Shown: piece by piece, positions 25,207 to 64,000 of the stretch | How the letters are laid out: each line of letters opens with the position of its first letter | Position numbering within the stretch: the first letter of the stretch is position 1 | IMG/VR virus record: IMGVR_UViG_3300045963_000147 | Coordinates: 1-64,000 of that record | DNA length: 64,000 bases | Origin: a virus | Reading direction: 5' to 3' (one strand) | Notes under the pieces: model-generated | What the model was told of the DNA's origin: nothing | Seen by the model: the letters and a program-made list of their open reading frames with translations, nothing else | The model's database searches: none | Made by a program: the position numbers and the translations under genes

Positions 25207-25732
25207 CCGAGCCCGCCGCCAGCGCCAGCTTGACGACATCACTGCCGCGCGGCTCAAGCGCGACAAGCGCGACCAGCGCGAGAGAGCGCGCATTCGAGAG
25301 CACGCCCACAACGCCCAGGTCGTCGCCGCCGTCACTGCCAAGCTGACTGCCGCCCGGCCCAAGACCATGTTCGAAGAGGGCGGGGCGTTCGGACAGCCCC
25401 TGTCCAACTCGTTCATCGCCAAGATGTACGCGAACATAGTCGCCAACAAGATGGCCGGCAAGTCGATCTTCGCGAACGCGAACGTGAGCAGCGGTGCAGC
25501 AATTCAGGCCATGATCCACCGCCCGCGCACCCTGGTCATCGACGACCTCATCGCGGCCGACAAGCTCATCGACTACGGCACCGCGAAGAACCCCAGCTTC
25601 AGCCAGCGCCAGGGCCTGAAGCCGCTCGACGAGGCCGTCCACGACAACTGGGCGGACGCCTCGAAGTACCTCATCGGCTGGGACTTCGGCGTCAAGGGCT
25701 CCCCGGCCGTCGTCATCGCCAGTGGCAGCTAA
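25196..25732 (+). CDS. Hypothetical protein between terminase genes
   Basis: The product has 178 residues (MRTDRARRQRQLDDITAARL...). A highly basic N-terminal helix (about residues 1-45) ends AAVTAKLTAARPK, again showing VTxKLT. The rest is helical with NSFIAKMYANIVANKMAGKS and ends GWDFGVKGSPAVVIASGS. GGAG precedes ATG 25196. It may help the terminase bind DNA or the portal; unknown. Confidence 0.55.
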   Translation: MRTDRARRQRQLDDITAARLKRDKRDQRERARIREHAHNAQVVAAVTAKLTAARPKTMFEEGGAFGQPLSNSFIAKMYANIVANKMAGKSIFANANVSSGAAIQAMIHRPRTLVIDDLIAADKLIDYGTAKNPSFSQRQGLKPLDEAVHDNWADASKYLIGWDFGVKGSPAVVIASGS

Positions 25733-44360: not shown

Positions 44361-45526
44361 CTTTCAAGGCCTTCACGGGCATCAACAACGCACAGCCCAC
44401 ACACCGGTTGGGCACCAGCGAGCTGACGGCGGCGCTCAACGTGGACGTGGGGCTGTCGGGCGAGGTGTCGCGACGTGCGGGCTACTCGCAGCTCTACGGG
44501 ACGTGTCACAAGAATCTCTGGCAGGCCAACGGGTTCAAGCTGGCCACCATCGCTGGCAACGACCTATACGCCATCAGCCCGTCGTGGGCCTACACCCTGG
44601 TGTCAGCGTCGTTGGGCACTTCGCGGGTCTGGTACTGCAACCTGCCCGACGGGCGTACCACCTTCAGCAACGGTGCCATCAACGGCATCACGAGTGGCGG
44701 CGCATCCGTTGGCTGGGGCGTCCCGATCCCCACCAGCTTGGGCGCGATTGCCGACGTGTCCGGTTCGCTGTTTGCCGGCGACTACCAGTACCAGTTGACC
44801 TACCGGCGCACGGCGGACGGCCTGGAGAGCGGGCCGCTGTACTCCAACCCGAACACGATCACGGCTGGTGGCATCGCGCTGACCGGCCTCCCTACCCTGA
44901 CCGGGCACACGATCAACGTCTACATCACCGGGCACAACGGTGGCACGGCCTACTACGCGGGCAACACCGCGACGAGCACGTTCAGCTACACCGGCACCAA
45001 TGCCACGCTCGTGAAACCCTGCCGCACCGAGATGCTGTCCCCTGCACCCGTCGGCACAGTGACGGCTTTCTGGCGCGGCCGTGTGCTGGTCGCGCAGGGC
45101 TCGGTCTTGCGGGCGTCGATGGCGGGCCGCTGGCAGCACTTCAACATGCGCCGCGACTTCAAGCAGTTCAGCGCGCCGATCACGTTGATTCAGCCCGTCG
45201 ACGGCGGCATCTTCGTTGGCACGACCAAGGAGCTGTGCTTCTTGGCCGGAACCGAGTTCGACAAGCTCACCTACGTTCAGGTTATCAACGGCTCGACGGT
45301 GTTGGGCAGTGGGGTCACTGTGCGCGGCGAGCTGCTTAAACAGGGCGAGGGCGCTGGCCTGGGCAGCGCGATGGTCTGCATCGCCGACAGCGTGGTGGTG
45401 GCCGGCTTTAGCGACGGCCAGATCGTGCGGCTGACAGAGGGGCGCTACAGCACGGCGGTTACCGAAGTTGCCGCGACCTTCCGTATGAACGGCCGTATCC
45501 CGCAGTACATCGCTGTTCCGCAATGA
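44354..45526 (+). CDS. Structural protein, beta-propeller-like
   Basis: The product has 390 residues, strand-rich. It has AAL-NVDVGLSGEVSRRAGYS near the start, then repeats such as GNDLYAISPSWAYTLVSASL, DYQYQLTYRRTADGLESGPL and VDGGIFVGTTKELCFLAGTE. The last resemble blades of a propeller in tail tubular proteins of podoviruses. It overlaps the previous gene slightly and is coupled to the next (ATGA). Confidence 0.6.
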   Translation: MLTFKAFTGINNAQPTHRLGTSELTAALNVDVGLSGEVSRRAGYSQLYGTCHKNLWQANGFKLATIAGNDLYAISPSWAYTLVSASLGTSRVWYCNLPDGRTTFSNGAINGITSGGASVGWGVPIPTSLGAIADVSGSLFAGDYQYQLTYRRTADGLESGPLYSNPNTITAGGIALTGLPTLTGHTINVYITGHNGGTAYYAGNTATSTFSYTGTNATLVKPCRTEMLSPAPVGTVTAFWRGRVLVAQGSVLRASMAGRWQHFNMRRDFKQFSAPITLIQPVDGGIFVGTTKELCFLAGTEFDKLTYVQVINGSTVLGSGVTVRGELLKQGEGAGLGSAMVCIADSVVVAGFSDGQIVRLTEGRYSTAVTEVAATFRMNGRIPQYIAVPQ

Positions 45527-49774: not shown

Positions 49775-52339
49775 ATGGCAACCCCATCGCAACGGCTACG
49801 GCAAGGGGCTTTCGGCGACATGGCCGATCAACTGACGCCTGAGCTGGGCGGTCCGACGATGGGGCCGAACGAGGGTCCGCAAACTCCCCGCGTGTGGAAC
49901 CCACCGAAACCGACGCTTTACGGCGCCCCTGAAGGCGTCGCCACTGACCAGGGTGCTGCTGAAGGACTGCGGCGCAGCCGGCTTGCCATGCCGCCGAACG
50001 CCGGCCCTCAAACCCCGCGCGTGTGGAACCAGCCCGGCCCCACGTTGTTCGGGACGCCGGCCGGACCGACTGCGGACCTTGGCGCTGCCCAGGCAGTGTT
50101 GAGGGAAGGCGCCCGTATGGGGCCGAACGCCGGCCCGTCGCTCCCCGGCGGGATGGGGCCGAACACTGGCCCGACAGCTCCGTTGCCAATGGGGCCGAAC
50201 TCTGGCCCTTCGATTCCAGGCGGGATGGGGCCAAACTCTGGTCCGTCGGTTCCTGGTGGAATGGGGCCGAACACAGGTCCGGTGCCGCAGGCCCCGTCGT
50301 CCGGTTGGTTCCGCAAGAACGCGCCCAGGACGGCGGCTTTCGGTGACGCCGCTGCCGGCTTTGCCGGCGACAAGCTGCGCATGGTGGCCAAGGGTGCTTC
50401 TGCCCTCGCCCCTGCCGTGCTGCCTCTCGTTGGCGGCTACGGCGCCTCGAAGTTCATCGACGCCGCCACCGACCGCGCCAACGCGAACACGCCCGACGCG
50501 CCCGCGCCTCAAGGCCCCGGGCAGATCCCCATCGACCCGAACGGCCCCAAGGCGCCGCAGGCCCAGCCGAGCAACTGGCTGCGCGACACCGAAACCGGCC
50601 GCAACATCGCCGCCGCCACGAACGCGCTCGGCCCGGTCGCTCCTGTCGCCAGCGAAGCGCTGCGCACAGGCACGGCCCTGGCCAACACATTCAGCGGCGT
50701 GTCGAAAGTGAGCGCACCGGCGCTGTCTGCGGCCACGCGCGCCGCGCCGATGGTCGGAGCCGCAGCGGTGGGCGCCGGCATGGCGTCGCCTGAGCCGCAG
50801 TCGTTTGGTGGCGCCCCTGGCAAACCAAATCCGAACACCTACCTGCCGAACTGGCGCGCCCTTGAATCCGGTGCGCGCGGCGACAACGATCTGCGCCGCA
50901 GTGACCGCGTCGGCGGCTACGTTCCGACGAACTTCGACGAGAACGGCAAGCCTGCGGGCAACCTGTCCAGCTACCTCGCTGGCGGCGGCGACGGCACGCC
51001 GTTCGACCCGATGGGTGGGCGCGGAGGTGGCAAAGATGGGCGCCTGCCCACTGACCTCTTTCAGCTCCAGCAGGGTAGCGTCTACAAGACCGTGGACCCG
51101 AAGACCGGCCGCACCGTCTACAGCGGCGTCAACGTCAAAGAGAACGCCGACATCCGCAACGGCAGCGGCGCCATGACCGGCCGGCTGCGCAACGGTCCCG
51201 ACCAGAACGTAATTGACGGCGTCCCAATGGCCGCAGCAGGGATGGGTTTCAACCCGGGTGGTGCGGCGGCGACGCAGAAGGAACTCGCCGGGCTGGTGGC
51301 TGAGCGCAAGCTCCGCGAAGCCGATCAGGCCGCGCACATGCAGACCGAGCCCATCGGCTTCAGCGGCGAGACGATCTTCGACCGCCCCAACAAGAACAGC
51401 GGCAGTGGCTCGATGCCCAAGGGCATGTCCGGCCGGCAGCAGGTCGCGTGGCAGACACAGCAGGAAGCTCACGCTATCCAGCGCGAGCAGATGGGCCAGC
51501 AGCTACGCCTGGGCGTGATGGGCAACAACACCCAGATGCAAGTCGCGGGGATGAACAACGCCACGTCCCGGTCGAACAACACCGTCAACAACGACACCGC
51601 TCTGCGCGCGCAGGACATCCACCAGCAGACGGCGTTGGCGCCGCTCATGTTGGCTGCGCAGCAGCGCGCTGCTGCCGCACAGATTTACCAGAAGCTCGGC
51701 GCCGGCGGCAAAGACGGCAAGGCGGCGATCACCCCTGACCAGCACCGACAGGCCGGCGACATGATGCACGCCTACGGCCTAACCGACCTCGGCGACAAGG
51801 CCTACGCCGCCGCTACCTCGGGGCAGGCGATCAAGGGCACCCAGTCGAAGCAGGCGCGCGACGACCACGACGACCTTGTCGGAGCCTTCCAGGACGATCC
51901 GCGCTTCAACACGCCGGACCCGAAAGACCCGAACAAGACCGTGTTCGACAAAGCCGGTGCAGAGCGCGCGGCGACGGCGATGCAGAACGCCTACGGCCCG
52001 AAGCTCGACAACCTGTCACAGGACGAGAAGAAGGCAGCGAAGGGCGACATCGTGGCTGAACAGCAGCTCACCGACCGGCTGCGCCAGCCTGAGATGGGGT
52101 TCGGCGACCACATTGCGAGCGTCTTCGGCCAGTACCGCAAGCCGCAGGACAACACCGTGCTGCCGAACCTGCGCGACCTGACGCCGCGCCGACGGGGATT
52201 TAGCGTCATCCCGGGCCACGACCAGAACGACATCCTGCTGGAGAAACCAAACGGCCCGACCTACAACGCCGGCAACCTGACCGACGCGCAGATCAAAGCG
52301 CTCGAAACACGCGGTCTGAACGCGAAAGGCCTCCGCTGA
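49775..52339 (+). CDS. Large virion-type protein with GPNxGP repeats
   Basis: The product has 854 residues. The N-terminal ~170 residues hold repeated Pro/Gly-rich units (GPNAGPQTPRVWNQP, GPNTGPTAPLPMGPNSGP), then a hydrophobic Ala-rich region around residues 190-330 (GASALAPAVLPLVGGYGASK) and a charged C-terminal half. It is coupled to the giant protein by one base (TGATG), so both probably assemble together. It may be an internal virion or injected protein of the tail; this is inferred. Confidence 0.6.
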   Translation: MATPSQRLRQGAFGDMADQLTPELGGPTMGPNEGPQTPRVWNPPKPTLYGAPEGVATDQGAAEGLRRSRLAMPPNAGPQTPRVWNQPGPTLFGTPAGPTADLGAAQAVLREGARMGPNAGPSLPGGMGPNTGPTAPLPMGPNSGPSIPGGMGPNSGPSVPGGMGPNTGPVPQAPSSGWFRKNAPRTAAFGDAAAGFAGDKLRMVAKGASALAPAVLPLVGGYGASKFIDAATDRANANTPDAPAPQGPGQIPIDPNGPKAPQAQPSNWLRDTETGRNIAAATNALGPVAPVASEALRTGTALANTFSGVSKVSAPALSAATRAAPMVGAAAVGAGMASPEPQSFGGAPGKPNPNTYLPNWRALESGARGDNDLRRSDRVGGYVPTNFDENGKPAGNLSSYLAGGGDGTPFDPMGGRGGGKDGRLPTDLFQLQQGSVYKTVDPKTGRTVYSGVNVKENADIRNGSGAMTGRLRNGPDQNVIDGVPMAAAGMGFNPGGAAATQKELAGLVAERKLREADQAAHMQTEPIGFSGETIFDRPNKNSGSGSMPKGMSGRQQVAWQTQQEAHAIQREQMGQQLRLGVMGNNTQMQVAGMNNATSRSNNTVNNDTALRAQDIHQQTALAPLMLAAQQRAAAAQIYQKLGAGGKDGKAAITPDQHRQAGDMMHAYGLTDLGDKAYAAATSGQAIKGTQSKQARDDHDDLVGAFQDDPRFNTPDPKDPNKTVFDKAGAERAATAMQNAYGPKLDNLSQDEKKAAKGDIVAEQQLTDRLRQPEMGFGDHIASVFGQYRKPQDNTVLPNLRDLTPRRRGFSVIPGHDQNDILLEKPNGPTYNAGNLTDAQIKALETRGLNAKGLR

Positions 52340-55300
52340 TGGCCACGCTGCGCGACCTGGGCGTTACCCCCACCAGCCCGCAGGGGCCTACGACTCTGCG
52401 CGACCTGGGCGTCGTGGCTAACGCTCCGATGGATGCCGCCAGCCAGCAGTTCATGGACCAGTCCGCCGCCAACGGGATGGGCCAGCTCCGCAAGGGCTTC
52501 ACCTCTGGCCTCTACGGCGGCGACGCCAACGCCCTGGCGTCTCAGGTCTCGTCGCTGCGCGCGTCGGGCCGCACCGCTGAGGCCGACGCCCTGATGCCGC
52601 AGATCGAAGCGGCGAATCAGCGCGCAGCCACGTTCGCGCCGGCCGAGCCCAGCCTCTACAACATCGGCCTGGACGGCGCACTGCGCAACCCGGGCCGGGT
52701 GCTGGACTGGGGCCTGGGCGCCGCAGGGCAGGGCACGGCCAGCATGGTCGAGCCGATCGGCGCTGAACTCGTCGTCGCTGGCGCCGGCAAGGTGCTGGGT
52801 GCGCTGCCGTGGGCGCCGGCCAAGATGCTGGGCAAGGGCCTCCAGTACGCTGCGCCGCTCGCCGCCGGGGCGCTGAACTACCGCCAGAACAAGGGCGAGT
52901 TCGTGCAGGACGCCTGGAAAGACCCGGCGATCATGGCGAAGACGCCGCAGGAGATTGAGAACGCCGCCATGGTCCACGGCGCCCTGGCTGGCTCGCTGGA
53001 CACGGCCCTGCCGCACATGGTCTCGAACCGGCTGCTGGGTAAGGGCGGCATCAAGGCCCTGGAGGGCCTCTCCAAGCCCGCGAAGGTGGGTCTGGACCTG
53101 TTGGGTGAGGGTACGACCGAAACGATGCAGGAGGGCATCAAGAAGGGCGCGCTGAGCTACCTGAACCCCAACCGGGACAAGAGCGGCGACCTGGGCGACT
53201 ACGTGGACTCGTTCGCGGGTGGCGTGGCCGGCGCCGGCCCGGTCAGCGGGCTGAGTCACCTCGCCGCTTCCGGCCACGCCCGGGTGGCCACGCCCGACGG
53301 CGCGAGCAACGACGTGAGCGGCAAGCCCGCTGCGCCAGCACCCGAGGACAAGAGCCTCAAGGGCACGATCCTGAAGCGCGCCAAGGAGCAGAAGGTCGAC
53401 GGGAAAGAGCTGGACGACTGGCACAACCTGATGAGCGGGCAGGACGCCGAGGGGAACGTCTCTGGCGCGACCATCCTGGCACAGGAGGACGCGGTCAAGA
53501 AGGAGCTGGAGGCCCGCGCGGGTCGCGGCGACCAGGAAGCAGCGAAGCACCTGGACACCATCAACAACGACCCGGGCGACGGGTCTGCGGACGGCGCGGT
53601 CCACAACGCCGCGACCTACATCAAGGGCGACGGCTCGCCGGCCGCACGCGCCAAGCTCATCGAGGCTTTCAACGGCCGCAAGAAGAACGAGCAGGGCGCG
53701 AAGTCCTCGCCCGAGGAAGAGCTGGCCGCGCGCCTCGCCGAGGACGCTGTTCCTGAGCGAATGAAGTACGAGTCGGACGACAAGGGCTACTTCACGAACC
53801 TGCGGGCGAAGGCACGCGACATCGGCGAGAACATCGCTGTGCTGGCGCGCAGCTACAAGACCGAGAAGGTCGACTCGTTCTCCGACGGCCTGCTCGACTC
53901 CGTGGCCCATGAGGCGGTGGACCTGTGGGGCGGCAAGAACGCCCAGGCCACCGTTGCCAGGATCGCCACGGCGCTGGGCGTCGAGAAGACCCCGGCGATG
54001 CAGCAGCTCCAGCAGGCGCTGGCCGGGTCTGAGCAGCGCAAGCAGTGGAACGAGACGCGCACCACGAACCGCACCAACGCGGCGGAGCGCATCGTCAAGC
54101 TCATCCCGACTGAGCAGAAGCTCAAGCTCCACAAGGCCGGCATCGACCTGACGGACCCGGGCGTGGCCGACTCGATGCTCCACGCGACGCAGAAGTTCCT
54201 GGCGAAGGACAGCCCGCACGCGCGCATCGAGTTCAACAAGTTGATGGGCGGCGCGAAGGTCGCCGACGCGGTGCTGAACTTCGTCAAGACTTCGAAGATC
54301 GAAGAACGAGACCCGGCAGAACACAAGCCGGGAGACTCCCGGGAAAAGGACGGGAAAGAGGACACGACCCCCGCCGAGAGCGACGACGTGACCCAGCCCG
54401 GGGCTTCGCCGTCAGACGACTTGTCGAACGAGAACGAAGACGACAAGTGGGTGCTGGACGGCGCCAACAAGAACATGGCGAAGGCCCCTGGTGCCAAGCT
54501 GTACGGTCTGCGCGGTGAGACCCACCTTCGCGACGGCCTGGAGTCCCACCCCTTCACCGAGAACGCCAACAAGCGCCTGCCATCGCTCGTCACCGAGGAC
54601 CAGACCGACGAAGGCGACGGCAAGAACTCACTGCTCGGCATGCAGGAGCGGGCGCACAAGTCGCTGGGTGGCGTGCTGGACGACGAGGTCAAGCAGAGCG
54701 GCACGTTCGGCGTGGGCTCGTACCGGGTCCGCGCCGTCTCTGCGAAGGAGGTCATGGACAACCACCGCGTCTCGATCCCCCAGCGGATCAACCTGCTGCG
54801 CCGGTACCTCGCCCAAGAGCCTGCCTCGAAGCTCGCTACCGAAGCCGCGAAGAAAGCCAAGGCTGCGGGCGCTCCCGACAAGGAGGTGCGTAAAGTACGT
54901 GAGGCGGCGTACAACAAGGCCTACGACGAGGCGTTCAACAGTGAACACTTCGACGCCGTGCGCAGGCTCGGCCTGGAGATTTACAAGGGCCACGTCGCCC
55001 CGACGATCGGCGAAGACCGTGGCACCTCCGACGACATCAAGCGCGCGGGTGACAGCAAGATCACTGCTGCCAAGCGTGAGCGGCTCCGCCAGGAGCTGAC
55101 ACGCATGGCGACGCAGGTAGGCGTCGAAGAATTCGGCGGCGAGAACGCCGACCTCTCGACCCTGGCAAACGGTTTCTTCAGCAACCGCTTCCTCGTCACG
55201 GCCGAGCAGATGGCTGAGAAGGATCAGCTCCGTCTGAACGTGGCTGAAGTCGTGAGCATGATCCGCCACGGTGCTGAGTTGGAGAACTACACCGACCAGT

Positions 55301-58300
55301 TCGGGGACACGAAGGCCGACGTCCTGGCCGGCATGAACCTGATTCGCTTTCCGTCCCCCTACGCCACGGCCAAGGACGGCATTGCGGTGGTGCCAGCAGG
55401 CGACCTCGTGTCGTGGGCGAACCGCAATCGCACTGAGTTCGAAGACGACGACAGCGGCTCGAAGAAGCCGTATGCCTACCGCGACTCGTTGATGGAAGCC
55501 ATCGGGGCGCTGGTGGTTGACGACTTTGCCACTGCGCTGCCGCACGTCATCAACGCCAAAGGGAAAGAGGAACACTTCGGCAACAAGAAGCACCCGTTCC
55601 CGCCGTCGATGAAGCTGGGCCGCTCCGAGCAGTGGCGCCTGGACTACAGGGATGAGATGCGGCAGGCCGAAGCTGCCGAGCGGTCCGCCGCCGAAGCCCG
55701 TGACGGTCGCCCGATGAAGGCCGGCGAGAACACACGTGATGCACGCAGCGGGCTGCTGCACCAGGAGCGGATGGCGAAGGAGCAGGGGCCTGACCCGGCA
55801 GTCGACAAAGACAGTGGTGTCCCCGACGAGTTCCGACACCCTGGTGCTGAACGCGGTGCAGCGGAACGTCGCGCCACGCCGCCTGAAGCCGGCGCACAGG
55901 GTGAGATGTTCGAGGGCGGCACGAAGTCGAACAATGGCGCTCTGAAGAGCTACCGAAGCGGCAGCGAGATTCGCCAAGAGCATGCCGGCGTCCCAGAGAC
56001 CGCAACTCACGAGCCTCGCGGCTCAGCCGAGCGCTTCTGGGACGCACCCGAGCTGGACGACAAGCGCACCGATCGCGCCGACGCTGTGCCGTCCGAGCGA
56101 GTGCGCAAGCAGAAGAAGGGTGTGCCGACGGAGTTCACCGATCAGCAGCAACAGTCTTCTGTCGCCCGCTCGGCTCAAGACAAGGTCGAGACCTTGACGG
56201 CCACCAACGCGATGAGTCGTGCGGCAGTGATCGCCGGGCACGTGCTGCGCATGTTCGACATGCTCCAGCCGACGCCGATGAAAGTCGGCAAGGAAGACCG
56301 CGTCATCAAGAGCGACGTGCAGGCGGACCCGGCTCGTGCGTACGAGATGCTGAAGCAGTTGGGCCGTGCGCTCGACCGCCCGAGCTACATCGACGAGAAA
56401 AGCTCGAAGGGGTTGGAGGGCAAGGACCAGCTCGCCGGTGGCAAGTTCTACGCTGCCCCGCTCGCGCACATCTTGACGCCGAAGAACTCGAACGTCCTGG
56501 TGAGCATAGCGCGCGACCCAGCGAAGGCGAAGGCCACGCTGCGGGCAATGCGCGGCAAGGTCGCCCAGGCTCTGCTGGACGCTAAGCAGAGCGAGATTGC
56601 TGCGCACGACCGGCTGACGCTGGCGAAGTTGTTGACCGGCCAGGAAGACCTGAAGTTCGGCAAGCCGATGAAGGAGGCGCTGGAGAAGCTGCTGCCGGCG
56701 CCGAAGGTCGAGGTGAAGACTGAGTCCGCTGCTGCGTCGGCGCCGCGCACCCAGGCTGAGTCGGCTGCACATCAGGCGAAGGTGAACGACCCAGCGAACA
56801 TCGCCAGGACCAAGGCGGCGCGCGTCGACGATGAGCCGGCGTTTGCGCCCTCCCTTGCGAAGCAGACATCCTGGGTCGCCGACAAACTGAACCAGTCCCT
56901 CGGCGCGCTCACCGCCGCCATCAAAGGCTTCACGGGCGAGCAACTGCTGGCCCTGGGCGACGTGATGCAGCAGGACGTGCCGGCGGGCGCCAGCAAGGTG
57001 CGCTGGGGCAACGCCCGGCAGCACATCGAGGACCGCATCTACGACACGGTGACTGCTGAGCAGGTGCTTGCGCACGAGGCGAAGACGGCCGAGCCCGCCC
57101 CTTCAAAGGGCGACGTCTCCGAACAAGCCCGCGCGCTTATGGCCGAGAAGAAACACCTGTGGAGCCCTGAAGCATTCGACGACCAGGGACACAGCGCCTA
57201 CAACACGGGCGTCGATTCCCTCCTGCAAGACGCTGAGGATGACACCTTCGCGTTCGACCGCAAGACCGGCGCCCCAAACATGACCGTCTACAAGAAGTTC
57301 ATGGTCGCTGTCGAGAAGCGCAAGCCTGAACTGAAGGCTTTTGCCCAGGCCGTCTGGGACCGCTCGGCCGCTCAAGCAGCACACGTCGCCAAGGCAGATG
57401 CGTTCTTCCTGAAGAACCGCGAAGCGCTCGCCAACCACCCCGACGCGATGAAGAACTTCGCCGGGGACATCAAGCGCGTCGGGCAAGCACAAGCGCGCGG
57501 GAACGAAGGGAAGGTGTGGGGCATCCACGCCGACCTGATGCAGCAGATGTTCGAGCGCCGTGGAGATGAGGCGTGGCGCAAGGCTCAGATCGCGGACAAG
57601 GAAAAGCGCCTCGCGAAGTACATGGCCGAGAGCGGCAAGGCGACCAGCGCGACCGGGTTCATGAGCATCATCCAGAAGGAAATTGACCTGTTGAAGGCCA
57701 ACGACCTCCAGGGGATGATTACTTCTGCGGCTAAGTTCCGGGAGCCGAACGATTTCCGCCGCAGCAATTACCCAGGTTTCCCCGAGCCGAACCTCAAGGC
57801 CGAACCGACGACGAAGCCCGCCCCTCTCTCCGAGATGGAGCGCGACGCGAGTGCGCGCAAGCTGAACGAGATGGGCGCCCACCCGCTGCTGACCGGCGTC
57901 ACTGCCACGGTCGCTGACACCCAGTCGATCATGCGCATGCTGGGCTTCAAGGCTGCGCCGCCGAAGTTCGCAGACGTGGCCGGCAAGCTCCTGGCCGACC
58001 CGAACATCAACATCGCCAAGTTCGTCAAGGACAGCGCCGAGGCGTTGAGCCACATCCTGACGAAGGGGCCGCAGGCCAAAGAACTGCGCGAGGCTCTGTC
58101 CAGCGACACGTGGTTCGCGCAGCGCGCCAAGATTACTGCCAACCTCGTGAAGGGCGGGATGATGCGCGGCGATGCACTCGTCGAGTCCTACCGCGTCCTG
58201 ACCGAACAGGCGCTGATGGGCGAGTTGGCCGCACGCACGAAAGCAGACCAGAGCGTCATCGCCCGCCTGATGCAGGCGGTGCAGGACTTCGTCTCGCGCT

Positions 58301-61300
58301 TCAAGGAGATGACGGGCTCAGCCGAGTTCGCCGACCTCGTGCGCAACCACCTGAACAAGGCCGTCGAAGCTGCCAACACGCCGGCGCAGTTGAAGGAGGG
58401 CTACAAGAAGGTCTCGTTCCAGGAGGCGATTGACGCTGACAAGCAGTCGGCCCGGGTGCTGGCGCACATGAGCCTGAACCCGAATGTCGCCATCACCGGC
58501 AGCATCGTCCTGGCCGAGAGCGGCTCGATCTACCGCGACGCGAAGAACATGCTGCACGACCTGGACTTCCTGGTCACGGGCACGAAGGACGCAGCCGAAG
58601 CGTGGCTGCGCAAGGGCTTCCCCGACGCCACCCAGGTCTACGACTTCAACACCAGCAACGGCAAGGTGGACAGCTTCCTCGTGCCGCCGGCCGGCGCGAC
58701 GATCGAGAACATCAAGCGCGAGTTCGGAGAGAAGGGCCGGGTGCTGGGCTTCGAGGTCCACAAGGACGGCAAGGTGATCGGCCGCACGTGGAACGACGAG
58801 AAGGGCGAGCACAAGGAGGGCGATGCCGGCACGTTCGTTGACCTGTTCACGAACAGCGGCACCGAAGTTGCCTCGACCATCCCCTTCACGGTCGGCGGCA
58901 AGCAGTTGTCGATCAAGGCTGCGAACCCGGCGGCGATCTTCAACGCGAAGCTCAACATGGGCCGCGAGAAGGACATGAACGACTACGGCCGCTACGTGCC
59001 GAATGTCGGGCGCCAGCTCAACGAGCAAGCTGCGCCGACCGCAGCCGACATTCAGTCCTCAGCCAACGCCGCCCCCAAAGACGAGGCCATCGCCAAAGTC
59101 AAGGCCTACGTCGCCAAGGTGCTTGGCCCGAAAGTCCGTGTCGCCTTCGAGGAAGTCTTCGACGCCGCTGGCGAGTGGATCGACGCCGAGAACCTGATGA
59201 AGATCGCCCTCAACGGCGGGCCGGGCATGGAGACCGTCGCCCACCACGAGGCGATGCACGCCTTCTTCAGCCGGCTGATGAAGCACAACCCCGAAGCCGC
59301 CGAGAAGCTCAAGCGCGTGCTGGGTGAGGGTGAGACCTACGAGCGCCTGAAGGCCCTGCTCCACGGCGAGACGAAGGCCCTGGAAGCCATGGCCCGTGAC
59401 CCTGAGGAGCGCGTCGCCTACGCATTCCAGTTCTGGGCTGCTGGCCGGCTCGAAGTGGACAAGCCGGCGACGACGATGTTCGCCAAGTTTCGCCGGCTGC
59501 TGCGCAAGGTGTTCGGCATGGTGCGCGAAAGCGAGACCGCGCTGGACATCATGACCGCCTTCCACGACGGCAAGCTGGCCGACGAGAACGCCGCCGGCAA
59601 GGCCATCAAGAAGATCATGGACCGCGAGACGTGGAACGAGGACCAGAAGCGCAAAGCCGACCGTCTGTTCCAGCGCATGCACTACGAGCTGGACCCGTCG
59701 ATCGACATCTTCCGCAAGGAAGACCTCAGCTCGATCATCCGTGACCTGGGCAACTCGTTCTTCACCAACCCGGGCGAAGAGGCTGACGGCCAGCACGAGC
59801 CGGGCTTCATCAATGCGCGCGGCACGATGATGCGCAAGTTCTCGAACTGGCTCGACCGGGCCGTCGGCACGCGCACGACGCTGAACGACTCGGACCGCTT
59901 GGCGGTGATCGAGGCGCTGCAAGGTGAGAACGGCCCGAAGAACCTTCACCTCGCCGCGCAGAAGCAGGCCTACGCCGACGTCCACGCGCTGCTGGAGCGC
60001 TTCCACAAGTACGCCACGAGCCGCGGCATGAAGCTGGAGTACATCAGCGACTACTTCCCGCGCGTCTGGGACTTGTCGAAGCTCATCGAAGGTGGCGGCA
60101 AGGAGAAGTTCGCCGCGATGGTGAACCAGAGCAAGTACGACAAGATCGTCGCCGACATGCTGGCCGGCATCAACCAGAAGCTGCCTGCTGCACAGCACAA
60201 GACGAAGGAGCAGTTGATCGAGGCCATGCACCGGCAGTTGATCGACCGCAACGGCGTGGACGAGAACGACATGCTGGCCGAGTCCGACATGGGCGACCTG
60301 ATCTTCAAGCCGTTCTTCGCGTCAGGCAAGGAGCGCAACTTCAAGTGGCTCGACAAGAACGATGTCCGGGATTTCCTGGAGAAAGACCTCATCGGTGCCA
60401 TGTCGCGCTACCTCCAGCAGGGCGTGCGCGCCGCTGAGTTCTCGCACAAGTTCGGCGAGGGTGGCCAGAAGCTGAAGAAGGCGCTCGTGATGAAGGGCGA
60501 CCTGGAGATGGACCCCTCGACCGGCAAGCTGGAGCCGCGCCCCACGTACGGCCCGGCCGAGAACCAGATGTACAGCGCCCTGGCCGAGAAGGGCATCAAG
60601 GGCGACGAGGCGAAGGCCATGGTGGACCGCCGCATGCGCAACGCGCGCAACGCCGCTGCGGCCATGGAGGGCTCGCTGGGCGGTGACATCAGCGACAGCT
60701 TCCGCAAGGCCTCCAGCGCCATGATCGCCTACCAGAACCTGCGCCTGCTGCCGCTGAGCCTGTTCGCTGCCTTCGGCGACATCGCCGGCATTGCAGCGCG
60801 CAACGACAAGGACGGCTGGACGGGCGCCTACGAGGCCTTCATCGGCGGCATGAAGGACGTGTTCGCCAACTGGAAGCGCAACGCCAGCGACATGCCCGGC
60901 CCGCGCAAGGTGAGCGTCATGGAGAACATCGCTGAGGCCATCGGCGCGGTGGACAGCCATATGTTCCTCGAACAGGTCGGCAAGGCCCACACCAGCGAGT
61001 TCATGACCGACACGGCGCGCAACATCGGCCGCAAGCTGTTCATGGTCAACGGCTTGACCGCCTGGGACCGCAGCATGCGCGTGACGGCCACGAAGTTCGC
61101 CATGCAGTTCCTGGAGCGCCACAAGAGCCTGCCCGACAAGCAGCACAGCGCCCGGTGGTTGGCCGAGGTCGGCCTGAAGCCCGAGGACATCACCCTGAAT
61201 GCCGACGGGAAGCTGGTCTGGGACCGCCGAGAGTTGGCCGCGATGCGCATGAAGCCCGGCATGAACGAGAAGCAGCAGAGCGCGGTCATGGAGCAGGCCA

Positions 61301-61836
61301 CAGCAGATACTGAGAAGGTCCACAACGCCCTGGTGCGGTGGGTCGAGGGTGCTGTGCTGTCGCCCAATGCCGGCCTGCGCCCGAGCCGCGCCAGCGACCC
61401 GCACTTCGCGGTGCTGTACCACCTCAAGCAGTTCACCTACGCGATGCACCACGTCGTCCTGAAGCGCGCCTGGAACGAGGCACGTCAGGGGAACTCGAAC
61501 CCGATCGGCGCCCTGGCCGGCGTCATCCCCGTGATGATCGTGTCGGACATCACCAAGGGCCTGCTCACCGGCGGCGGCTCGTTGCCGGACTACATGAAGT
61601 CGTGGAACGCAGCCGACTGGATCGAGCACGGCGCGAACCGTGGCGGGCTGGCCGGCAAGTACCAGCTCGCGCTCGACGCGGTGCGCGACCCGGTGAGCAT
61701 CATGGGGCCGACGGTGGAGCAGTTCAGCAAGCTGGTGATGAACCCGGGCGACATCGGCAAGAACCTGCTCGACGCGGTGCCGGGTGTGCGCATGGTTAGC
61801 GGCGCTGCCAGCCACATCAGAGAAGTGGCGGACTGA
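52339..61836 (+). CDS. Giant multi-domain virion-type protein (3165 residues)
   Basis: The gene covers 9.5 kb. It starts with two TLRDLGV repeats, then an Ala/Gly-rich hydrophobic zone (about residues 130-190). A polymerase-beta-like nucleotidyltransferase motif is visible: GS at 2062-2063, then Asp2074-x-Asp2076, then KVDSFLV. A zincin-like motif HHEAMH (His2303, Glu2304, His2307) follows with DPEERVAYAFQ. The C-terminal 500 residues are helical (MIAYQNLRLLPLSLFAAFGD, KQFTYAMHHVVLKRAWNEAR). This fits the large polyvalent proteins thought to be packed in phage heads and injected. No T7/N4-type RNA polymerase motif was seen. Confidence 0.85.
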   Translation: MATLRDLGVTPTSPQGPTTLRDLGVVANAPMDAASQQFMDQSAANGMGQLRKGFTSGLYGGDANALASQVSSLRASGRTAEADALMPQIEAANQRAATFAPAEPSLYNIGLDGALRNPGRVLDWGLGAAGQGTASMVEPIGAELVVAGAGKVLGALPWAPAKMLGKGLQYAAPLAAGALNYRQNKGEFVQDAWKDPAIMAKTPQEIENAAMVHGALAGSLDTALPHMVSNRLLGKGGIKALEGLSKPAKVGLDLLGEGTTETMQEGIKKGALSYLNPNRDKSGDLGDYVDSFAGGVAGAGPVSGLSHLAASGHARVATPDGASNDVSGKPAAPAPEDKSLKGTILKRAKEQKVDGKELDDWHNLMSGQDAEGNVSGATILAQEDAVKKELEARAGRGDQEAAKHLDTINNDPGDGSADGAVHNAATYIKGDGSPAARAKLIEAFNGRKKNEQGAKSSPEEELAARLAEDAVPERMKYESDDKGYFTNLRAKARDIGENIAVLARSYKTEKVDSFSDGLLDSVAHEAVDLWGGKNAQATVARIATALGVEKTPAMQQLQQALAGSEQRKQWNETRTTNRTNAAERIVKLIPTEQKLKLHKAGIDLTDPGVADSMLHATQKFLAKDSPHARIEFNKLMGGAKVADAVLNFVKTSKIEERDPAEHKPGDSREKDGKEDTTPAESDDVTQPGASPSDDLSNENEDDKWVLDGANKNMAKAPGAKLYGLRGETHLRDGLESHPFTENANKRLPSLVTEDQTDEGDGKNSLLGMQERAHKSLGGVLDDEVKQSGTFGVGSYRVRAVSAKEVMDNHRVSIPQRINLLRRYLAQEPASKLATEAAKKAKAAGAPDKEVRKVREAAYNKAYDEAFNSEHFDAVRRLGLEIYKGHVAPTIGEDRGTSDDIKRAGDSKITAAKRERLRQELTRMATQVGVEEFGGENADLSTLANGFFSNRFLVTAEQMAEKDQLRLNVAEVVSMIRHGAELENYTDQFGDTKADVLAGMNLIRFPSPYATAKDGIAVVPAGDLVSWANRNRTEFEDDDSGSKKPYAYRDSLMEAIGALVVDDFATALPHVINAKGKEEHFGNKKHPFPPSMKLGRSEQWRLDYRDEMRQAEAAERSAAEARDGRPMKAGENTRDARSGLLHQERMAKEQGPDPAVDKDSGVPDEFRHPGAERGAAERRATPPEAGAQGEMFEGGTKSNNGALKSYRSGSEIRQEHAGVPETATHEPRGSAERFWDAPELDDKRTDRADAVPSERVRKQKKGVPTEFTDQQQQSSVARSAQDKVETLTATNAMSRAAVIAGHVLRMFDMLQPTPMKVGKEDRVIKSDVQADPARAYEMLKQLGRALDRPSYIDEKSSKGLEGKDQLAGGKFYAAPLAHILTPKNSNVLVSIARDPAKAKATLRAMRGKVAQALLDAKQSEIAAHDRLTLAKLLTGQEDLKFGKPMKEALEKLLPAPKVEVKTESAAASAPRTQAESAAHQAKVNDPANIARTKAARVDDEPAFAPSLAKQTSWVADKLNQSLGALTAAIKGFTGEQLLALGDVMQQDVPAGASKVRWGNARQHIEDRIYDTVTAEQVLAHEAKTAEPAPSKGDVSEQARALMAEKKHLWSPEAFDDQGHSAYNTGVDSLLQDAEDDTFAFDRKTGAPNMTVYKKFMVAVEKRKPELKAFAQAVWDRSAAQAAHVAKADAFFLKNREALANHPDAMKNFAGDIKRVGQAQARGNEGKVWGIHADLMQQMFERRGDEAWRKAQIADKEKRLAKYMAESGKATSATGFMSIIQKEIDLLKANDLQGMITSAAKFREPNDFRRSNYPGFPEPNLKAEPTTKPAPLSEMERDASARKLNEMGAHPLLTGVTATVADTQSIMRMLGFKAAPPKFADVAGKLLADPNINIAKFVKDSAEALSHILTKGPQAKELREALSSDTWFAQRAKITANLVKGGMMRGDALVESYRVLTEQALMGELAARTKADQSVIARLMQAVQDFVSRFKEMTGSAEFADLVRNHLNKAVEAANTPAQLKEGYKKVSFQEAIDADKQSARVLAHMSLNPNVAITGSIVLAESGSIYRDAKNMLHDLDFLVTGTKDAAEAWLRKGFPDATQVYDFNTSNGKVDSFLVPPAGATIENIKREFGEKGRVLGFEVHKDGKVIGRTWNDEKGEHKEGDAGTFVDLFTNSGTEVASTIPFTVGGKQLSIKAANPAAIFNAKLNMGREKDMNDYGRYVPNVGRQLNEQAAPTAADIQSSANAAPKDEAIAKVKAYVAKVLGPKVRVAFEEVFDAAGEWIDAENLMKIALNGGPGMETVAHHEAMHAFFSRLMKHNPEAAEKLKRVLGEGETYERLKALLHGETKALEAMARDPEERVAYAFQFWAAGRLEVDKPATTMFAKFRRLLRKVFGMVRESETALDIMTAFHDGKLADENAAGKAIKKIMDRETWNEDQKRKADRLFQRMHYELDPSIDIFRKEDLSSIIRDLGNSFFTNPGEEADGQHEPGFINARGTMMRKFSNWLDRAVGTRTTLNDSDRLAVIEALQGENGPKNLHLAAQKQAYADVHALLERFHKYATSRGMKLEYISDYFPRVWDLSKLIEGGGKEKFAAMVNQSKYDKIVADMLAGINQKLPAAQHKTKEQLIEAMHRQLIDRNGVDENDMLAESDMGDLIFKPFFASGKERNFKWLDKNDVRDFLEKDLIGAMSRYLQQGVRAAEFSHKFGEGGQKLKKALVMKGDLEMDPSTGKLEPRPTYGPAENQMYSALAEKGIKGDEAKAMVDRRMRNARNAAAAMEGSLGGDISDSFRKASSAMIAYQNLRLLPLSLFAAFGDIAGIAARNDKDGWTGAYEAFIGGMKDVFANWKRNASDMPGPRKVSVMENIAEAIGAVDSHMFLEQVGKAHTSEFMTDTARNIGRKLFMVNGLTAWDRSMRVTATKFAMQFLERHKSLPDKQHSARWLAEVGLKPEDITLNADGKLVWDRRELAAMRMKPGMNEKQQSAVMEQATADTEKVHNALVRWVEGAVLSPNAGLRPSRASDPHFAVLYHLKQFTYAMHHVVLKRAWNEARQGNSNPIGALAGVIPVMIVSDITKGLLTGGGSLPDYMKSWNAADWIEHGANRGGLAGKYQLALDAVRDPVSIMGPTVEQFSKLVMNPGDIGKNLLDAVPGVRMVSGAASHIREVAD

Positions 61837-61880
61837 TCGCCCACAAGCGATAAAGCCTCGCCGCAGGGCCTGTGCGCTCA

Positions 61881-61923
61881 ATCGCCTCTGGCCGATAAAG
61901 TGCGTTTATCGGCCAGAGGCGAT
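61881..61923. terminator. Perfect 19-bp hairpin between convergent arms
   Basis: ATCGCCTCTGGCCGATAAA (61881-61899), loop GTGCG, then TTTATCGGCCAGAGGCGAT. It lies 45 bases after the giant gene, before the leftward genes. There is no long T-run on either strand, so it may act as a bidirectional stop, an RNA-processing site or a DNA recognition site. Confidence 0.65.
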
Positions 61924-61991
61924 ACCCTTTCCCCGCGCCCCATTCCCAGAGAGTACGAAGAAAAGAGAACCGGCGCTGAGGCCGGCGTGGA

Positions 61992-62234
61992 TCAGAGGAA
62001 GGCTTCGGTGATGGCAATCTCGACGATGATGCGGGGAAGCCAGGACCGTGGATACAGAGCGAAGCAGTGCGAGCCCGGCCCCATGGTCTTCGGGCGATTC
62101 TCCTTGGGCGGCTGGCGACCGCTCTCAAGGAAATAGATTTCCTGCATGCGGTTGCCGACGGCCCATGACAATCTCTTGCTGGGGACTCGCTTCAGCATAG
62201 AGAACACTTCAGGGACGGTGATGCGAGTGTCCAT
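61992..62234 (-). CDS. Small hypothetical protein
   Basis: The product has 80 residues (MDTRITVPEVFSMLKRVPSK...). It has a basic middle (SGRQPPKENRPKTMGPGSHC) and a hydrophobic end (PRSWLPRIIVEIAITEAFL). It follows the gene at 62238 with a 3-base gap. No family was recognised. Confidence 0.6.
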   Translation of the reverse strand: MDTRITVPEVFSMLKRVPSKRLSWAVGNRMQEIYFLESGRQPPKENRPKTMGPGSHCFALYPRSWLPRIIVEIAITEAFL

Positions 62235-62237
62235 GAG

Positions 62238-62507
62238 TTATTCCAGGTCGATGGTGGTGGACTCCCAAGTCTCGTCGGTCTGAACGACGACGTACTTGGT
62301 GCGAGGGTTGGTGGGGTCAGCCTTGTAGCGCGACTTGATCGGCCCGATGGTCTTCATGCTCATCTCGTTGATCGCGAGCTGGCGCTTTGAAATCTCGCCG
62401 TGGTCATTGATCGCGTGCCGACAGACAAGGTCGTAGGGCACACGCTTGAGCGCCATGCGGGCCTCTGGCGTCATGCGCAAGGTGCCGAGGAGGAAGTTCG
62501 TCTGCAT
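62238..62507 (-). CDS. Small hypothetical protein
   Basis: The product has 89 residues (MQTNFLLGTLRMTPEARMAL...). A helix LKRVPYDLVCRHAINDHGEI is followed by a strand-rich end (TKYVVVQTDETWESTTIDLE). It lies directly downstream of the second copy of the inverted element, as does the primase-helicase for the first copy. No family was recognised. Confidence 0.6.
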   Translation of the reverse strand: MQTNFLLGTLRMTPEARMALKRVPYDLVCRHAINDHGEISKRQLAINEMSMKTIGPIKSRYKADPTNPRTKYVVVQTDETWESTTIDLE

Positions 62508-62530
62508 GCCTAAGTTGCTTCCCTTTTTGG

Positions 62531-62670
62531 CGCGGGAACCTTTTCTACAGGAATACTACTACCCTCTCTCCTTCTACTCTTCTTCTTTCTCTTGACTCAG
62601 AGTTTAGATTGGAAGAATAGAAGAATGGAAGAATACCTATAAAAAAGAGCCTTCCGAACCCCTGCCGAAA
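62531..62670. repeat. Copy 2 of the inverted ~140-bp element
   Basis: It runs from AACCTTTTCTACAGGAA through a pyrimidine-rich CTCTCTCCTTCTACTCTTC stretch to GATTGGAAGAATAGAAGAAT, ACCTATAAAAAAG and AGCCTTCCGAACCCCTGCC. The reverse complement of 19847-19992 carries the same blocks in the same order. No gene is encoded. A TTGACT sequence at 62592 could be a -35 element. Confidence 0.75.
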
Positions 62671-62683
62671 GGGAGGCAAGACC

Positions 62684-62899
62684 TTAGCCGATGAGCCCGT
62701 TCAGGAACTGCAAAAGTCCGTCCTTTTTTGCAAACACTTCCACGGCAATTGTGGCCGGCTTGGAGTCCTTGTCCGCGGCCTTCAGCGCCGACCGTGTCTT
62801 GCTCGCCGCGGTGGCTGAGCCGTCGAACTTGATGCCGGTGGCGACGGTGCCGTCATGGAGGATGTGCTGCTTGAAGTACGTTGTCTTGTAGAGCTTCAT
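62684..62899 (-). CDS. Small hypothetical protein
   Basis: The product has 71 residues (MKLYKTTYFKQHILHDGTVA...). It is Lys, Ala and Thr-rich with a strand-turn-helix appearance (AATIAVEVFAKKDGLLQFLN type). Its ATG overlaps the stop of the other-frame end of the gene before it (TGA 62896-62898), showing operon coupling. No family was recognised. Confidence 0.65.
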   Translation of the reverse strand: MKLYKTTYFKQHILHDGTVATGIKFDGSATAASKTRSALKAADKDSKPATIAVEVFAKKDGLLQFLNGLIG

Positions 62900-63130
62900 G
62901 GTTGCCTTTCAGGCGGTTGGTCTGAGGAGATGAGCTGCGCAACTTCTCGGGTGATGGCGCGTAGAGCGAATTCTTTGATGCGCGGGCTGCTGGCGCACGT
63001 CAGCTTTCTTTTCGCGCCCTGAAGGCAGCGCCAGCAGGAAGCGCAAGTGGCCATCGGCCTTGAGCCGCTCGATGACTTTGCAGCCGCCCTGAGCGATGGC
63101 TTGCTGGACTTGCCGCTCCCACTTCTTCAC
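62896..63130 (-). pseudogene. Small phage protein gene with apparent frameshift
   Basis: GTG 63130 (overlapping the previous stop as GTGA) starts MKKWERQVQQAIAQGG and continues HLRFLLALPSGREKK, which looks like a good small protein. After the A-rich run AAAAGAAAG (around 63005-63012) the frame gives low-quality sequence, while the +1 frame gives LTCASSPRIKEFALRAITRE and VAQLISS, and its stop overlaps the next ATG. Joining both gives one coherent product. It is a frameshift mutation, a sequence error, or programmed shifting. A short nested frame (MATCASCWRCLQGAKRKLTC) is a second possibility. Confidence 0.55.
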
Positions 63131-63486
63131 GGGTCGAGTTCCGTGAAGTCGGTGTCAGCCTCCTCGGGGGAGTAGACCCAGACCCAGGCCATGACGTAGT
63201 CGCCAGGGCCGTCGCTGCCCGAGCGCACCGTGATGTCGTCGATTTCAATCTCGCCATCACGGTGGTACTGAAGCCGAGCTGCTTCGATGATCGGATCGTC
63301 TTCGACTCCGAAGGCTTCGACGCAGTCGCCGAAGGTCACGCCTGCGTCGTCGAAGACCGAGCGCAGCTCGGCCGGTGACATCTTGGCCGGCGGTGGTGCG
63401 GTGACGTCCTTGAAGATGTCATCGGGCTCAGTCAGGATGCCGGCCATCGCCATGCCGGCAGCTTCAATCTCTTGGGTGGTGGGCAT
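63127..63486 (-). CDS. Small acidic hypothetical protein
   Basis: The product has 119 residues from ATG 63486 (MPTTQEIEAAGMAMAGILTE...). It is acidic. The middle, PAELRSVFDDAGVTFGDCVE, is helical; the end has YVMAWVWVYSPEEADTDFTE with strands. It overlaps the next gene (GTGA). No family was recognised. Confidence 0.6.
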   Translation of the reverse strand: MPTTQEIEAAGMAMAGILTEPDDIFKDVTAPPPAKMSPAELRSVFDDAGVTFGDCVEAFGVEDDPIIEAARLQYHRDGEIEIDDITVRSGSDGPGDYVMAWVWVYSPEEADTDFTELDP

Positions 63487-63488
63487 GG

Positions 63489-63704
63489 TCAGACCTCGCT
63501 GTACTTGCCGTCTTCCAGGCGGTCGACGAGCGGGCCGATGTCTTCCCACAAGGCGTCGGGCATGGCCTTGGCGTGCAGCCTGAGCAATTGCCTTTCGGTC
63601 TTGGTTCTGCGCTCACGGACGACTTGGATGAGTGCGTTGAGCACGCAGCCGTTTTCAGGGTGCAGCTTGATGGGAGCAGTGCAGTTCGGGCATTGGCGGG
63701 CCAT
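63489..63704 (-). CDS. Small putative zinc-ribbon protein
   Basis: The product has 71 residues from ATG 63704. MARQCPNCTAPIKLHPENGC has a Cys-x2-Cys pair and a third Cys, then a basic helix VVRERRTKTERQLLRLHAKA. It is the first gene of this leftward group. Its leader lies next to the att-like region. It may be a regulator; unknown. Confidence 0.6.
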   Translation of the reverse strand: MARQCPNCTAPIKLHPENGCVLNALIQVVRERRTKTERQLLRLHAKAMPDALWEDIGPLVDRLEDGKYSEV

Positions 63705-63714
63705 GGGCAAATCT

Positions 63715-63960
63715 CACGGTCACAGTTTTGGGCACAGTGCCCAGGAAACCCGCGCCGTTCCTAGCGTTTGGACCCAGCCCGCAACCTTGACATGGTGGGG
63801 GTCGATGGTTCGAGTCCATTCGCGCCTACCAGTTTTCATAGGTAAGCAGGGCAACCTGCTCGAAGTGAAATCTGGCGTAGAACAGTCATGGGGACGTTAG
63901 ATCAGGGGTGGTGTGTCACAGACGGTGGCACAGTGGGCGTTTCGGTGCCCAGGAAGGCCT
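63715..63960. other. Noncoding att-like region with repeats
   Basis: The palindrome TGGGCACAGTGCCCA (63735-63749) is followed by AGGAA. A related string recurs at about 63930-63955 as TGGCACAGTGGGC and GGTGCCCAGGAAGG. The tRNA-like fragment lies between them. Such flanking repeats resemble integrase arm-type sites around an attachment core. No gene is seen between 63705 and 63901. Confidence 0.45.
63794..63831 (+). other. 3'-end fragment of a tRNA gene, possible att core
   Basis: GATGG, TTCGAGT, CCATT make a T-arm (63804-63820), followed by CGCGCCT, A and CCA as the 3' acceptor strand and tail. The matching 5' acceptor strand (AGGCGCG) is not found within 100 bases upstream, so the tRNA is not complete. 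Phages carry such 3'-end copies when they integrate into tRNA genes. Confidence 0.6.
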
Positions 63961-64000
63961 CCGCCTTGTTCTCCGCCCTGAAGGTTTCGACGACGGTCTT
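63902..64000 (-). CDS. C-terminal end of a gene entering from the right, possibly integrase
   Basis: The last 32 residues read KTVVETFRAENKAEAFLGTE followed by TPTVPPSVTHHP and a stop at 63904. The frame is open to the right edge. The sequence alone does not show a domain. Because its end lies directly next to a tRNA-like att fragment, it might be the tyrosine integrase of the phage, but this is inference. Confidence 0.35.
   Translation of the reverse strand, partial: KTVVETFRAENKAEAFLGTETPTVPPSVTHHP

What the first reader, a model, noticed from the sequence alone, without database searches (positions are those of the whole stretch)
52339..61836. Giant protein carries nucleotidyltransferase-like and zincin-like active sites
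The 3165-residue product holds a GS...DxD...D pattern (2062-2076, KVDSFLV) of the polymerase-beta nucleotidyltransferase fold and a HHEAMH metallopeptidase motif (2303-2307). These are enzymes, not plain structure. If the protein is packed and injected, it could modify or cut host targets at the first minute of infection. The combination in one virion protein is unusual.
Basis: partly seen in the sequence, partly recalled or inferred. Interest (0 to 1): 0.7.

Follow-up and report, generated by a model that had tools for sequence, protein, structure and literature searches.

The report
Phage giant protein with swappable enzyme
A virus of bacteria carries a giant, probably virion-borne protein in which a fixed protein-cutting domain sits next to an exchangeable cargo, here a nucleotide-attaching enzyme shaped like bacterial toxins that disable tRNA; the general design is known, this cargo in a phage particle protein seems not to be.

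Summary
The ORF (52339-61836, 3165 aa) and both motifs exist and are real active sites, with corrections. Zincin: H2303-E2304-H2307 plus E2357 are the only invariant residues in 42 aligned relatives. A 38-sequence model (pLDDT 91.5) matches NTases, led by MenT3/TglT (Z 11.1). The zincin is in 65 of 68 relatives found through the C-terminal or zincin regions (the other 3 are fragments); the NTase is in 0 of 68. It lies in a 765-residue insertion that the sister protein L035 lacks, in a slot where relatives carry ART-PolyVal, cpYpsA-SLOG or LPD23 matches. A separate pattern scan found the NTase in large proteins of other uncultivated phages, followed by HExxH in 11 of 18 testable cases (0.1 expected). 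Best reading: a polyvalent-type ejected protein whose zincin frees cargo, here a MenT-like NTase. Packaging, cleavage and substrate are inferred. [quoted passage not shown] this is a new variant.

The parts
52339..61836 (+). Giant ORF, 3165 aa, last large gene of the structural run; its start overlaps the stop of the 854-aa ORF 49775-52339
   Evidence: PHROG 30152 'virion structural protein' E 2.3e-90, best stretch 2767-3149
52339..56712 (+). N-terminal frame, residues 1-1458, homologous to relatives (50% to L035, 29% to L036)
56713..59007 (+). Cargo slot, residues 1459-2223: 765 aa absent from L035 (16 aa there), replaced by other sequence in L037 and L038; bounded by the two linker-like stretches 1458-1495 and 2221-2253
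57853..59007 (+). NTase module, residues 1839-2223: helical companion (about 1839-2020) plus NTase core; shared with L094
58396..58998 (+). Pol-beta-type nucleotidyltransferase core, residues 2020-2220; pLDDT 91.5, pTM 0.87
58495..58566 (+). NTase signature T2053-G-S2055 ... G2062 ... R2066 ... H2073-D2074-L-D2076
58840..58842 (+).
58948..58983 (+). C-terminal NTase motif K2204-L-N-M-G-R2209-E-K2211-D2212-M-N-D2215
57856..57873 (+). RKLNEM (1840-1845), start of the NTase module; one of two RxLNEx repeats flanking it (candidate processing or recombination site, inferred)
59011..59028 (+). RQLNEQ (2225-2230), between NTase and zincin; same place in L035, L036 and L094
59077..59619 (+). Zincin-like metallopeptidase domain, about residues 2247-2427; pLDDT 89.2, pTM 0.83
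59245..59259 (+). HExxH: H2303 E2304 A M H2307
59407..59409 (+). Third zinc ligand E2357 in EERVAY, invariant in 42 of 42 rows
59626..61833 (+). C-terminal frame, residues 2430-3165, conserved in KPP25-like and other phages
49775..52339 (+). Upstream 854-aa ORF, syntenic in L035 and L036
44354..45526 (+). Head closure Hc3; with portal (28312-30468) and terminase (25722-27443) it marks the virion module

Best explanation
The ORF encodes a modular, probably virion-borne and ejected protein of the polyvalent kind. A conserved N-terminal frame (1-1458) and a conserved zincin plus C-terminal frame (about 2247-3165) hold between them an exchangeable cargo slot (1459-2223). In this phage the slot carries a MenT/AbiEii-like Pol-beta nucleotidyltransferase. 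I infer that the zincin cuts the linkers around the cargo during or after DNA ejection, possibly at the RxLNEx repeats at 1840 and 2225, and frees the NTase. I infer that the NTase then transfers nucleotides to a host target early in infection; the tRNA 3' end is the best single guess. Shown: ORF, both catalytic signatures, both predicted folds, constancy of the zincin, cargo exchange, recurrent NTase-zincin pairing. Inferred: packaging, ejection, cleavage, catalysis, target.
For: Zincin: H2303, E2304, H2307 and E2357 are the only invariant columns in 42 sequences; model pLDDT 89.2; the leading structural rows are metallopeptidases or metallopeptidase-like proteins. HExxH is in 65 of 68 relatives, the 3 without being 279-480 aa fragments. 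NTase: model pLDDT 91.5; the top 22 VIA-align rows are NTases or a poly(A) synthase, MenT3/TglT Z 11.1 over 156 residues, ANT(2'') 10.8, MenT1 10.7, TM1012 10.2; D2168 38/38, K2204 32/32. Slot: L035 (75% identical in the C-terminal part, sister with 100/100 support) lacks residues 1459-2223. Relatives carry there ART-PolyVal (L047, L049; E 3e-16, 2e-15), cpYpsA (L038; 4e-9), LPD23 (L058; 2e-6), DUF7831 (L044; 1e-42) and weak NADAR (L094; 4e-5, below cut-off). Pairing: 11 of 18 distinct NTase ORFs have HExxH 150-450 aa downstream, 0.1 expected. The NTase core of L094 is 66% identical to the window against 43% for the zincin and 40% for the C-terminus. Virion link: KPP25 ortholog annotated 'virion structural protein', structural synteny, hhalign P 81%, E 1.2e-5 to a protein of an SP6-like phage.
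Against: No mass-spectrometry record of this protein was seen; the KPP25 paper was not available. The zincin gave no Foldseek match at E <= 0.001, and its best Z of 8.1 is at the level the tool calls common. The NTase has no significant sequence match to any Pfam, PHROG, PADLOC or PDB family. A fold does not give a substrate: Pol-beta NTases modify RNA, proteins and small molecules. The RxLNEx sites were noticed after the fact and are not general: a looser form was in 8 of 41 relatives against 2.8 expected. N4 virion RNA polymerase is packaged unprocessed despite its zincin (PMC5512222).
Confidence: 0.6

Rival explanations
1. The zincin is an effector that cuts host proteins after injection, and the NTase acts in parallel inside the uncut giant protein.
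For: The structural neighbours include peptidases that act on other proteins; Iyer et al. list this option; some relatives carry a second HExxH further upstream (L053, L058, L061, L062, L064, L076).
Against: The zincin adjoining the C-terminal frame stays while the cargo changes, which fits a role in handling the protein itself.
Confidence: 0.2
2. The NTase repairs or protects tRNA, for example restoring 3' ends damaged by host defence, instead of poisoning the host.
For: CCA-adding and RlaP-type Pol-beta NTases are described in jumbo phages as RNA repair enzymes (PMC7824862 passages).
Against: The closest structural rows are the MenT tRNA toxins and the antibiotic-modifying ANT(2''), ahead of other NTases by a small margin only.
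Confidence: 0.2
3. The NTase modifies a host protein (NMPylation) or a small molecule such as a defence signal.
For: Iyer et al. predict protein NMP transfer for polyvalent NTases; other cargoes in the slot belong to NAD/ADP-ribose chemistry (SLOG, weak NADAR, ART).
Against: No sequence link to those NTase families was found.
Confidence: 0.25
4. Both domains are remnants without catalytic role in a structural or tape-measure-like protein.
For: The ortholog is annotated only as a structural protein; the NTase is missing from 68 relatives.
Against: Strict invariance of catalytic residues in 42 zincins and 38 NTases.
Confidence: 0.05

Closest known systems
Polyvalent proteins of phages (Iyer et al. 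2017, PMC5512222)
   Same: Large multidomain protein, zincin-like peptidase as hub, cargo of unrelated enzymes, predicted injection with DNA; ART-PolyVal and LPD23 occur in relatives
   Different: [quoted passage not shown] here one sits in a phage structural-module protein, and the NTase-zincin pair recurs
MenT/AbiEii nucleotidyltransferase toxins (MenT3/TglT, MenT1)
   Same: Best structural match (Z 11.1, 156 residues, rmsd 4.3 A); similar motif order: DxD, third acid, C-terminal K then D (MenT residues from PMC10435456 passages; the residue-by-residue match is inferred from order, not from a superposition)
   Different: No PF08843 match, 12-16% identity, no toxin-antitoxin operon looked for, a domain inside a 3165-aa protein
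Pseudomonas phage KPP25 and relatives, ORF088 (Kochitakasuvirus)
   Same: Homologous zincin and C-terminal frame (28.7% identity, E 1e-86), in the structural region, HESMH with a downstream EERIAY
   Different: No NTase motif; 2107-aa protein in CRPAP1904; other cargo
Protein of SP6-like phages annotated as internal virion protein (L006, ZHS-TASP18 and similar)
   Same: Zincin followed by helical C-terminus; hhalign P 81%, E 1.2e-5 over 107 columns
   Different: BLAST match not significant (E 7); no NTase
TM1012 nucleotidyltransferase (2ewr, 2fcl, 4hx0)
   Same: Top row in a PDB profile search, sharing TGS...HD(I/L)D; Z 10.2
   Different: Sequence E-value 0.35, not significant

Membership tests
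Pol-beta nucleotidyltransferase superfamily | G-[GS] ... DhD plus third acidic residue | tested here: met
   T2053-G-S2055, D2074xD2076, D2168 in 38 of 38 rows; the first ones were asked for by the search pattern, D2168 was not
Pol-beta nucleotidyltransferase superfamily | NTase fold | tested here: met
   AlphaFold2 pLDDT 91.5; VIA-align Z up to 11.1, top rows NTases; Foldseek E 1.1e-4
MenT/AbiEii toxins (PF08843) | match to the family profile | tested here: not met
   0 of 11 records at E <= 10; 6 of 14 control genomes ring
MenT/AbiEii toxins (PF08843) | nucleotide transfer to tRNA acceptor ends | not testable with these tools
   needs biochemistry
MenT/AbiEii toxins (PF08843) | partner antitoxin gene | not tested
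   no MenA/AbiEi search was made
Zincin-like metallopeptidases | HExxH plus downstream glutamate on a following helix | tested here: met
   H2303, E2304, H2307, E2357 invariant in 42 of 42 rows; they lie on predicted helices 62-81 and 120-132 of the model
Zincin-like metallopeptidases | fold match | tested here: inconclusive
   VIA-align rows led by metallopeptidase folds, Z 8.1; no Foldseek match at E <= 0.001
Pfam MPTase-PolyVal (PF18818) | profile match | tested here: not met
   0 of 10 records at E <= 10; not filed there
Polyvalent proteins (Iyer 2017) | several unrelated enzymatic domains in one large polypeptide of a mobile element | tested here: met
   NTase plus zincin in 3165 aa
Polyvalent proteins (Iyer 2017) | delivered into the host with the DNA | not testable with these tools
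   only annotation and synteny
LPD38 (PF18857) | profile match of the C-terminus | tested here: inconclusive
   0 of 10 records, but the controls rang nowhere either
N4-type virion RNA polymerase | single-subunit RNA polymerase domain | tested here: inconclusive
   no such Pfam or PHROG match in P0001

The most novel reading that the evidence does not exclude
Phages load a MenT-like tRNA nucleotidyltransferase into the virion as releasable cargo of a giant protein: the adjoining zincin cuts it out on entry at flanking RxLNEx sites, and the freed enzyme tails host tRNA ends to stop host translation before any phage gene is expressed. The NTase-zincin cassette is a mobile unit passed between giant proteins of unrelated phages.
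Probability: 0.25. Interest if true: 0.85.

Novelty: new variant of a known kind. Interest (0 to 1): 0.62.

Why it matters
It names a conserved NTase family that the profile libraries and named phage records searched here do not hold, and places it in probable virion proteins next to a peptidase. It gives exact residues (D2074, D2076, D2168, K2204; H2303, E2304, H2307, E2357) and a direct test of the 2017 proposal that zincins release the domains of polyvalent proteins: close relatives with an empty (L035), NTase (window, L094) or ART (L047, L049) slot are natural controls. If the target is tRNA, phages would use a bacterial toxin chemistry as an entry weapon.

Tried and rejected
Direct Pfam, NCBIfam, PADLOC and PDB sequence searches with the whole protein or its pieces gave nothing useful; weak VIT1, APH and S_100 rows were dismissed as below cut-off. 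tblastn of the NTase against 50,697 phage records gave only chance-level rows (E >= 2), and three NTase homologues from other phages gave none. Plasmids: 3 chance rows. NTase against 369 genomes of the class of G013: 7 rows at E 0.006-0.08; the alignments inspected lacked the signature and were rejected. The profile A3 matched 0 of 369, while a positive control matched 10 of 10 records. Two exact-peptide scans of viral contigs found no relative; an IUPAC pattern built from the window plus a remembered resemblance found 43 stretches, one of them with a stop in the motif (L091). AbiEii, LPD38 and MPTase-PolyVal profiles did not match. Families absent from the VIA lists are not excluded by that. 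A search of BFVD gave distant NTase-like rows, none recognisable as a phage giant protein. A general RxLN processing motif was considered and not supported beyond the close clade. Papers: PMC5512222 sections 8, 29 and 33 and passages read; PMC7824862, PMC9503650, PMC10435456, PMC13340246 and PMC4482731 passages only; PMC11541572 abstract and outline; the KPP25 paper (Miyata 2014) not seen. 'Not in print' for a phage virion NTase-zincin protein rests only.

Full report
WHAT IS THERE. The window is bases 1-64000 of a 68,749-base virus record. A minus-strand run holds DNA polymerase, helicase, ATPase and primase-like genes; a plus-strand run holds terminase (25722-27443), portal (28312-30468), head closure Hc3 (44354-45526) and other virion families. 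The giant ORF 52339-61836 (3165 aa) is the last large gene of that run. Its C-terminus matches PHROG 30152, 'virion structural protein' (E 2.3e-90), and Pseudomonas phage KPP25 ORF088 and its relatives (28.7% identity, E 1e-86), annotated as a virion structural protein. I could not read the KPP25 paper, so whether that label rests on mass spectrometry is unknown to me.

THE ZINCIN. Two scans of IMG/VR contigs and one of genome contigs, seeded by the C-terminal region and by the zincin region, gave 68 loci, 60 of them distinct. HExxH is present in 65 of 68; the three without are ORFs of 279-480 aa that do not reach the region. partly used a pattern containing HE..H, but a locus could also enter by a second pattern, and searches did not use HExxH at all (18 of their 21 ORFs carry it, the other 3 being those fragments). 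In an alignment of 42 sequences the only invariant columns are H2303, E2304, H2307 and E2357, the zinc ligands and general base of an HExxH...E zincin. The AlphaFold2 model (pLDDT 89.2, pTM 0.83) has an N-terminal helix, three strands, the HExxH helix and helices after it, the arrangement that Iyer et al. give for polyvalent peptidases (PMC5512222 section 8). VIA-align rows are led by zincin folds (anthrax lethal factor chains Z 8.1 over 148 residues, PPEP-3 6.8, IrrE 6.8, ArdC 6.1). Foldseek alone gave nothing at E <= 0.001, so the fold match is supportive, not conclusive.

THE NUCLEOTIDYLTRANSFERASE. No library matched it. An IUPAC pattern for TGSx6G[ST]h[YF]Rx6HDhD, scanned over viral contigs, gave 43 stretches, 42 of them open through the motif (43 ORF instances, L104 having two). 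Positions outside the pattern show kinship: D2168 and F2170 in 38 of 38 rows, K2204 in 32 of 32 rows that reach it, R2209 30 of 30, K2211 and D2212 29 of 29, D2215 25 of 25. The 38-row model is confident (pLDDT 91.5, pTM 0.87). The 22 best VIA-align rows are NTases or a poly(A) synthase: MenT3/TglT Z 11.1 (156 aligned, rmsd 4.3), ANT(2'') 10.8, MenT1 10.7, TM1012 10.2; rows within 1 of each other are tied. Foldseek agrees (Rv1045, E 1.1e-4). In a PDB profile search the top, non-significant row is TM1012 (E 0.35). PF08843 does not match although its controls ring. So it has the Pol-beta NTase fold and resembles MenT by geometry at most; it is not a member of PF08843.

A CARGO SLOT. The sister protein L035 (100/100 support) aligns with window residues 1-1458 at 50% and 2224-3165 at 75%, with 16 residues where the window has 765. 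L036 has 62 residues there between its aligned blocks; L037 and L038 carry some 780 and 655 other residues. The window stretch is bounded by the linker-like peaks 1458-1495 and 2221-2253. Ten plus ten slot stretches of relatives were scanned against Pfam: ART-PolyVal in L047 and L049 (E 3e-16, 2e-15), cpYpsA SLOG in L038 (4e-9), LPD23 in L058 (2e-6), DUF7831 in L044 (1e-42), NADAR in L094 (4e-5, below the family cut-off), nothing clear in the other 14. None of the 68 relatives has the NTase motif.

THE PAIR RECURS. Of 18 distinct NTase ORFs with enough sequence downstream, 11 have HExxH 150-450 residues after the NTase; shuffled sequence gives 0.1 (13 of 20 before removal of duplicates). L094 carries NTase, zincin and C-terminal frame in the same order in a 3175-aa ORF. 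On a tree of 24 C-terminal regions the window and L094 do not group: at least two changes are needed (L042, sister of L094, is cut short and its state unknown). The NTase core is 66% identical between them, the zincin 43%, the C-terminus 40%. This suggests, without proving, that the module moved between phages. In the ten records searched whole, the open frames around the NTase range from 734 to 5489 aa, nine of ten above 2600.

MECHANISM. The zincin stays while the cargo changes, which I read as a processing role: it frees the cargo. Iyer et al. proposed this for polyvalent proteins generally; they also note that N4 virion RNA polymerase is packaged uncut despite such a domain. In the window [RK]xLN[AEQ][MQ] occurs exactly twice, at 1840 and 2225, on both sides of the NTase module, and likewise in L094 at 1889 and 2268; cargo-less L035 and L036 keep the second site. 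It occurs 7 times in 102,476 aa of the 47 ORFs. I found it after looking, and it is not general, so it is a lead. For the NTase the MenT chemistry, adding nucleotides to tRNA acceptor ends and blocking translation (PMC10435456 passages, PMC11541572 abstract), is the best single guess; protein or small-molecule transfer and tRNA repair remain open.

AGAINST WHAT IS KNOWN. Polyvalent proteins with zincins are described since 2017. [quoted passage not shown] The present family is a counter-example in phages, with no match in 50,697 phage records for four queries (only chance-level rows). Five literature searches showed no description of it, within an open-licence library.

Noticed in passing
L104 (ORF of 3096 aa): Two copies of the NTase motif in one protein, at 342 and 1009, followed by HExxH at 1295.
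   Followed up: partly
window 57853-58395 (residues 1839-2019): Helical companion conserved in front of the NTase in several phages; by eye its pattern resembles a zincin that has lost its histidines. Not folded.
   Followed up: partly
L053, L058, L061, L062, L064, L076: A second HExxH some 200-570 residues before the conserved zincin: perhaps peptidase cargo.
   Followed up: no
L005:7030-13182 (Aeromonas phage phiA008): Homologous giant protein whose N-terminus looks by eye like a staphylococcal-nuclease domain; not tested.
   Followed up: no
L037, L038, L041, L060, L064, L080 just before the zincin: Shared stretch like NYVIYDDSKI, by eye like phage ADP-ribosyltransferase-type domains; Pfam gave no ART match for L037, L038, L041, L060 or L064 in the stretches scanned.
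   Followed up: partly
L025 and L027 (Acidovorax sp. MR-S7, Paenacidovorax caeni contigs): C-terminal fragments (480 and 279 aa) of the same family in these bacterial genomes: a hint to the host group.
   Followed up: no
L125:3772-4944 (KPP25 ORF002): Annotated 'photosystem II D1' in a Pseudomonas phage structural run; probably a mislabel.
   Followed up: no
window 61837-64000 and the record to 68749: Only open frames under 360 aa after the giant gene; no tRNA gene in the window.
   Followed up: no
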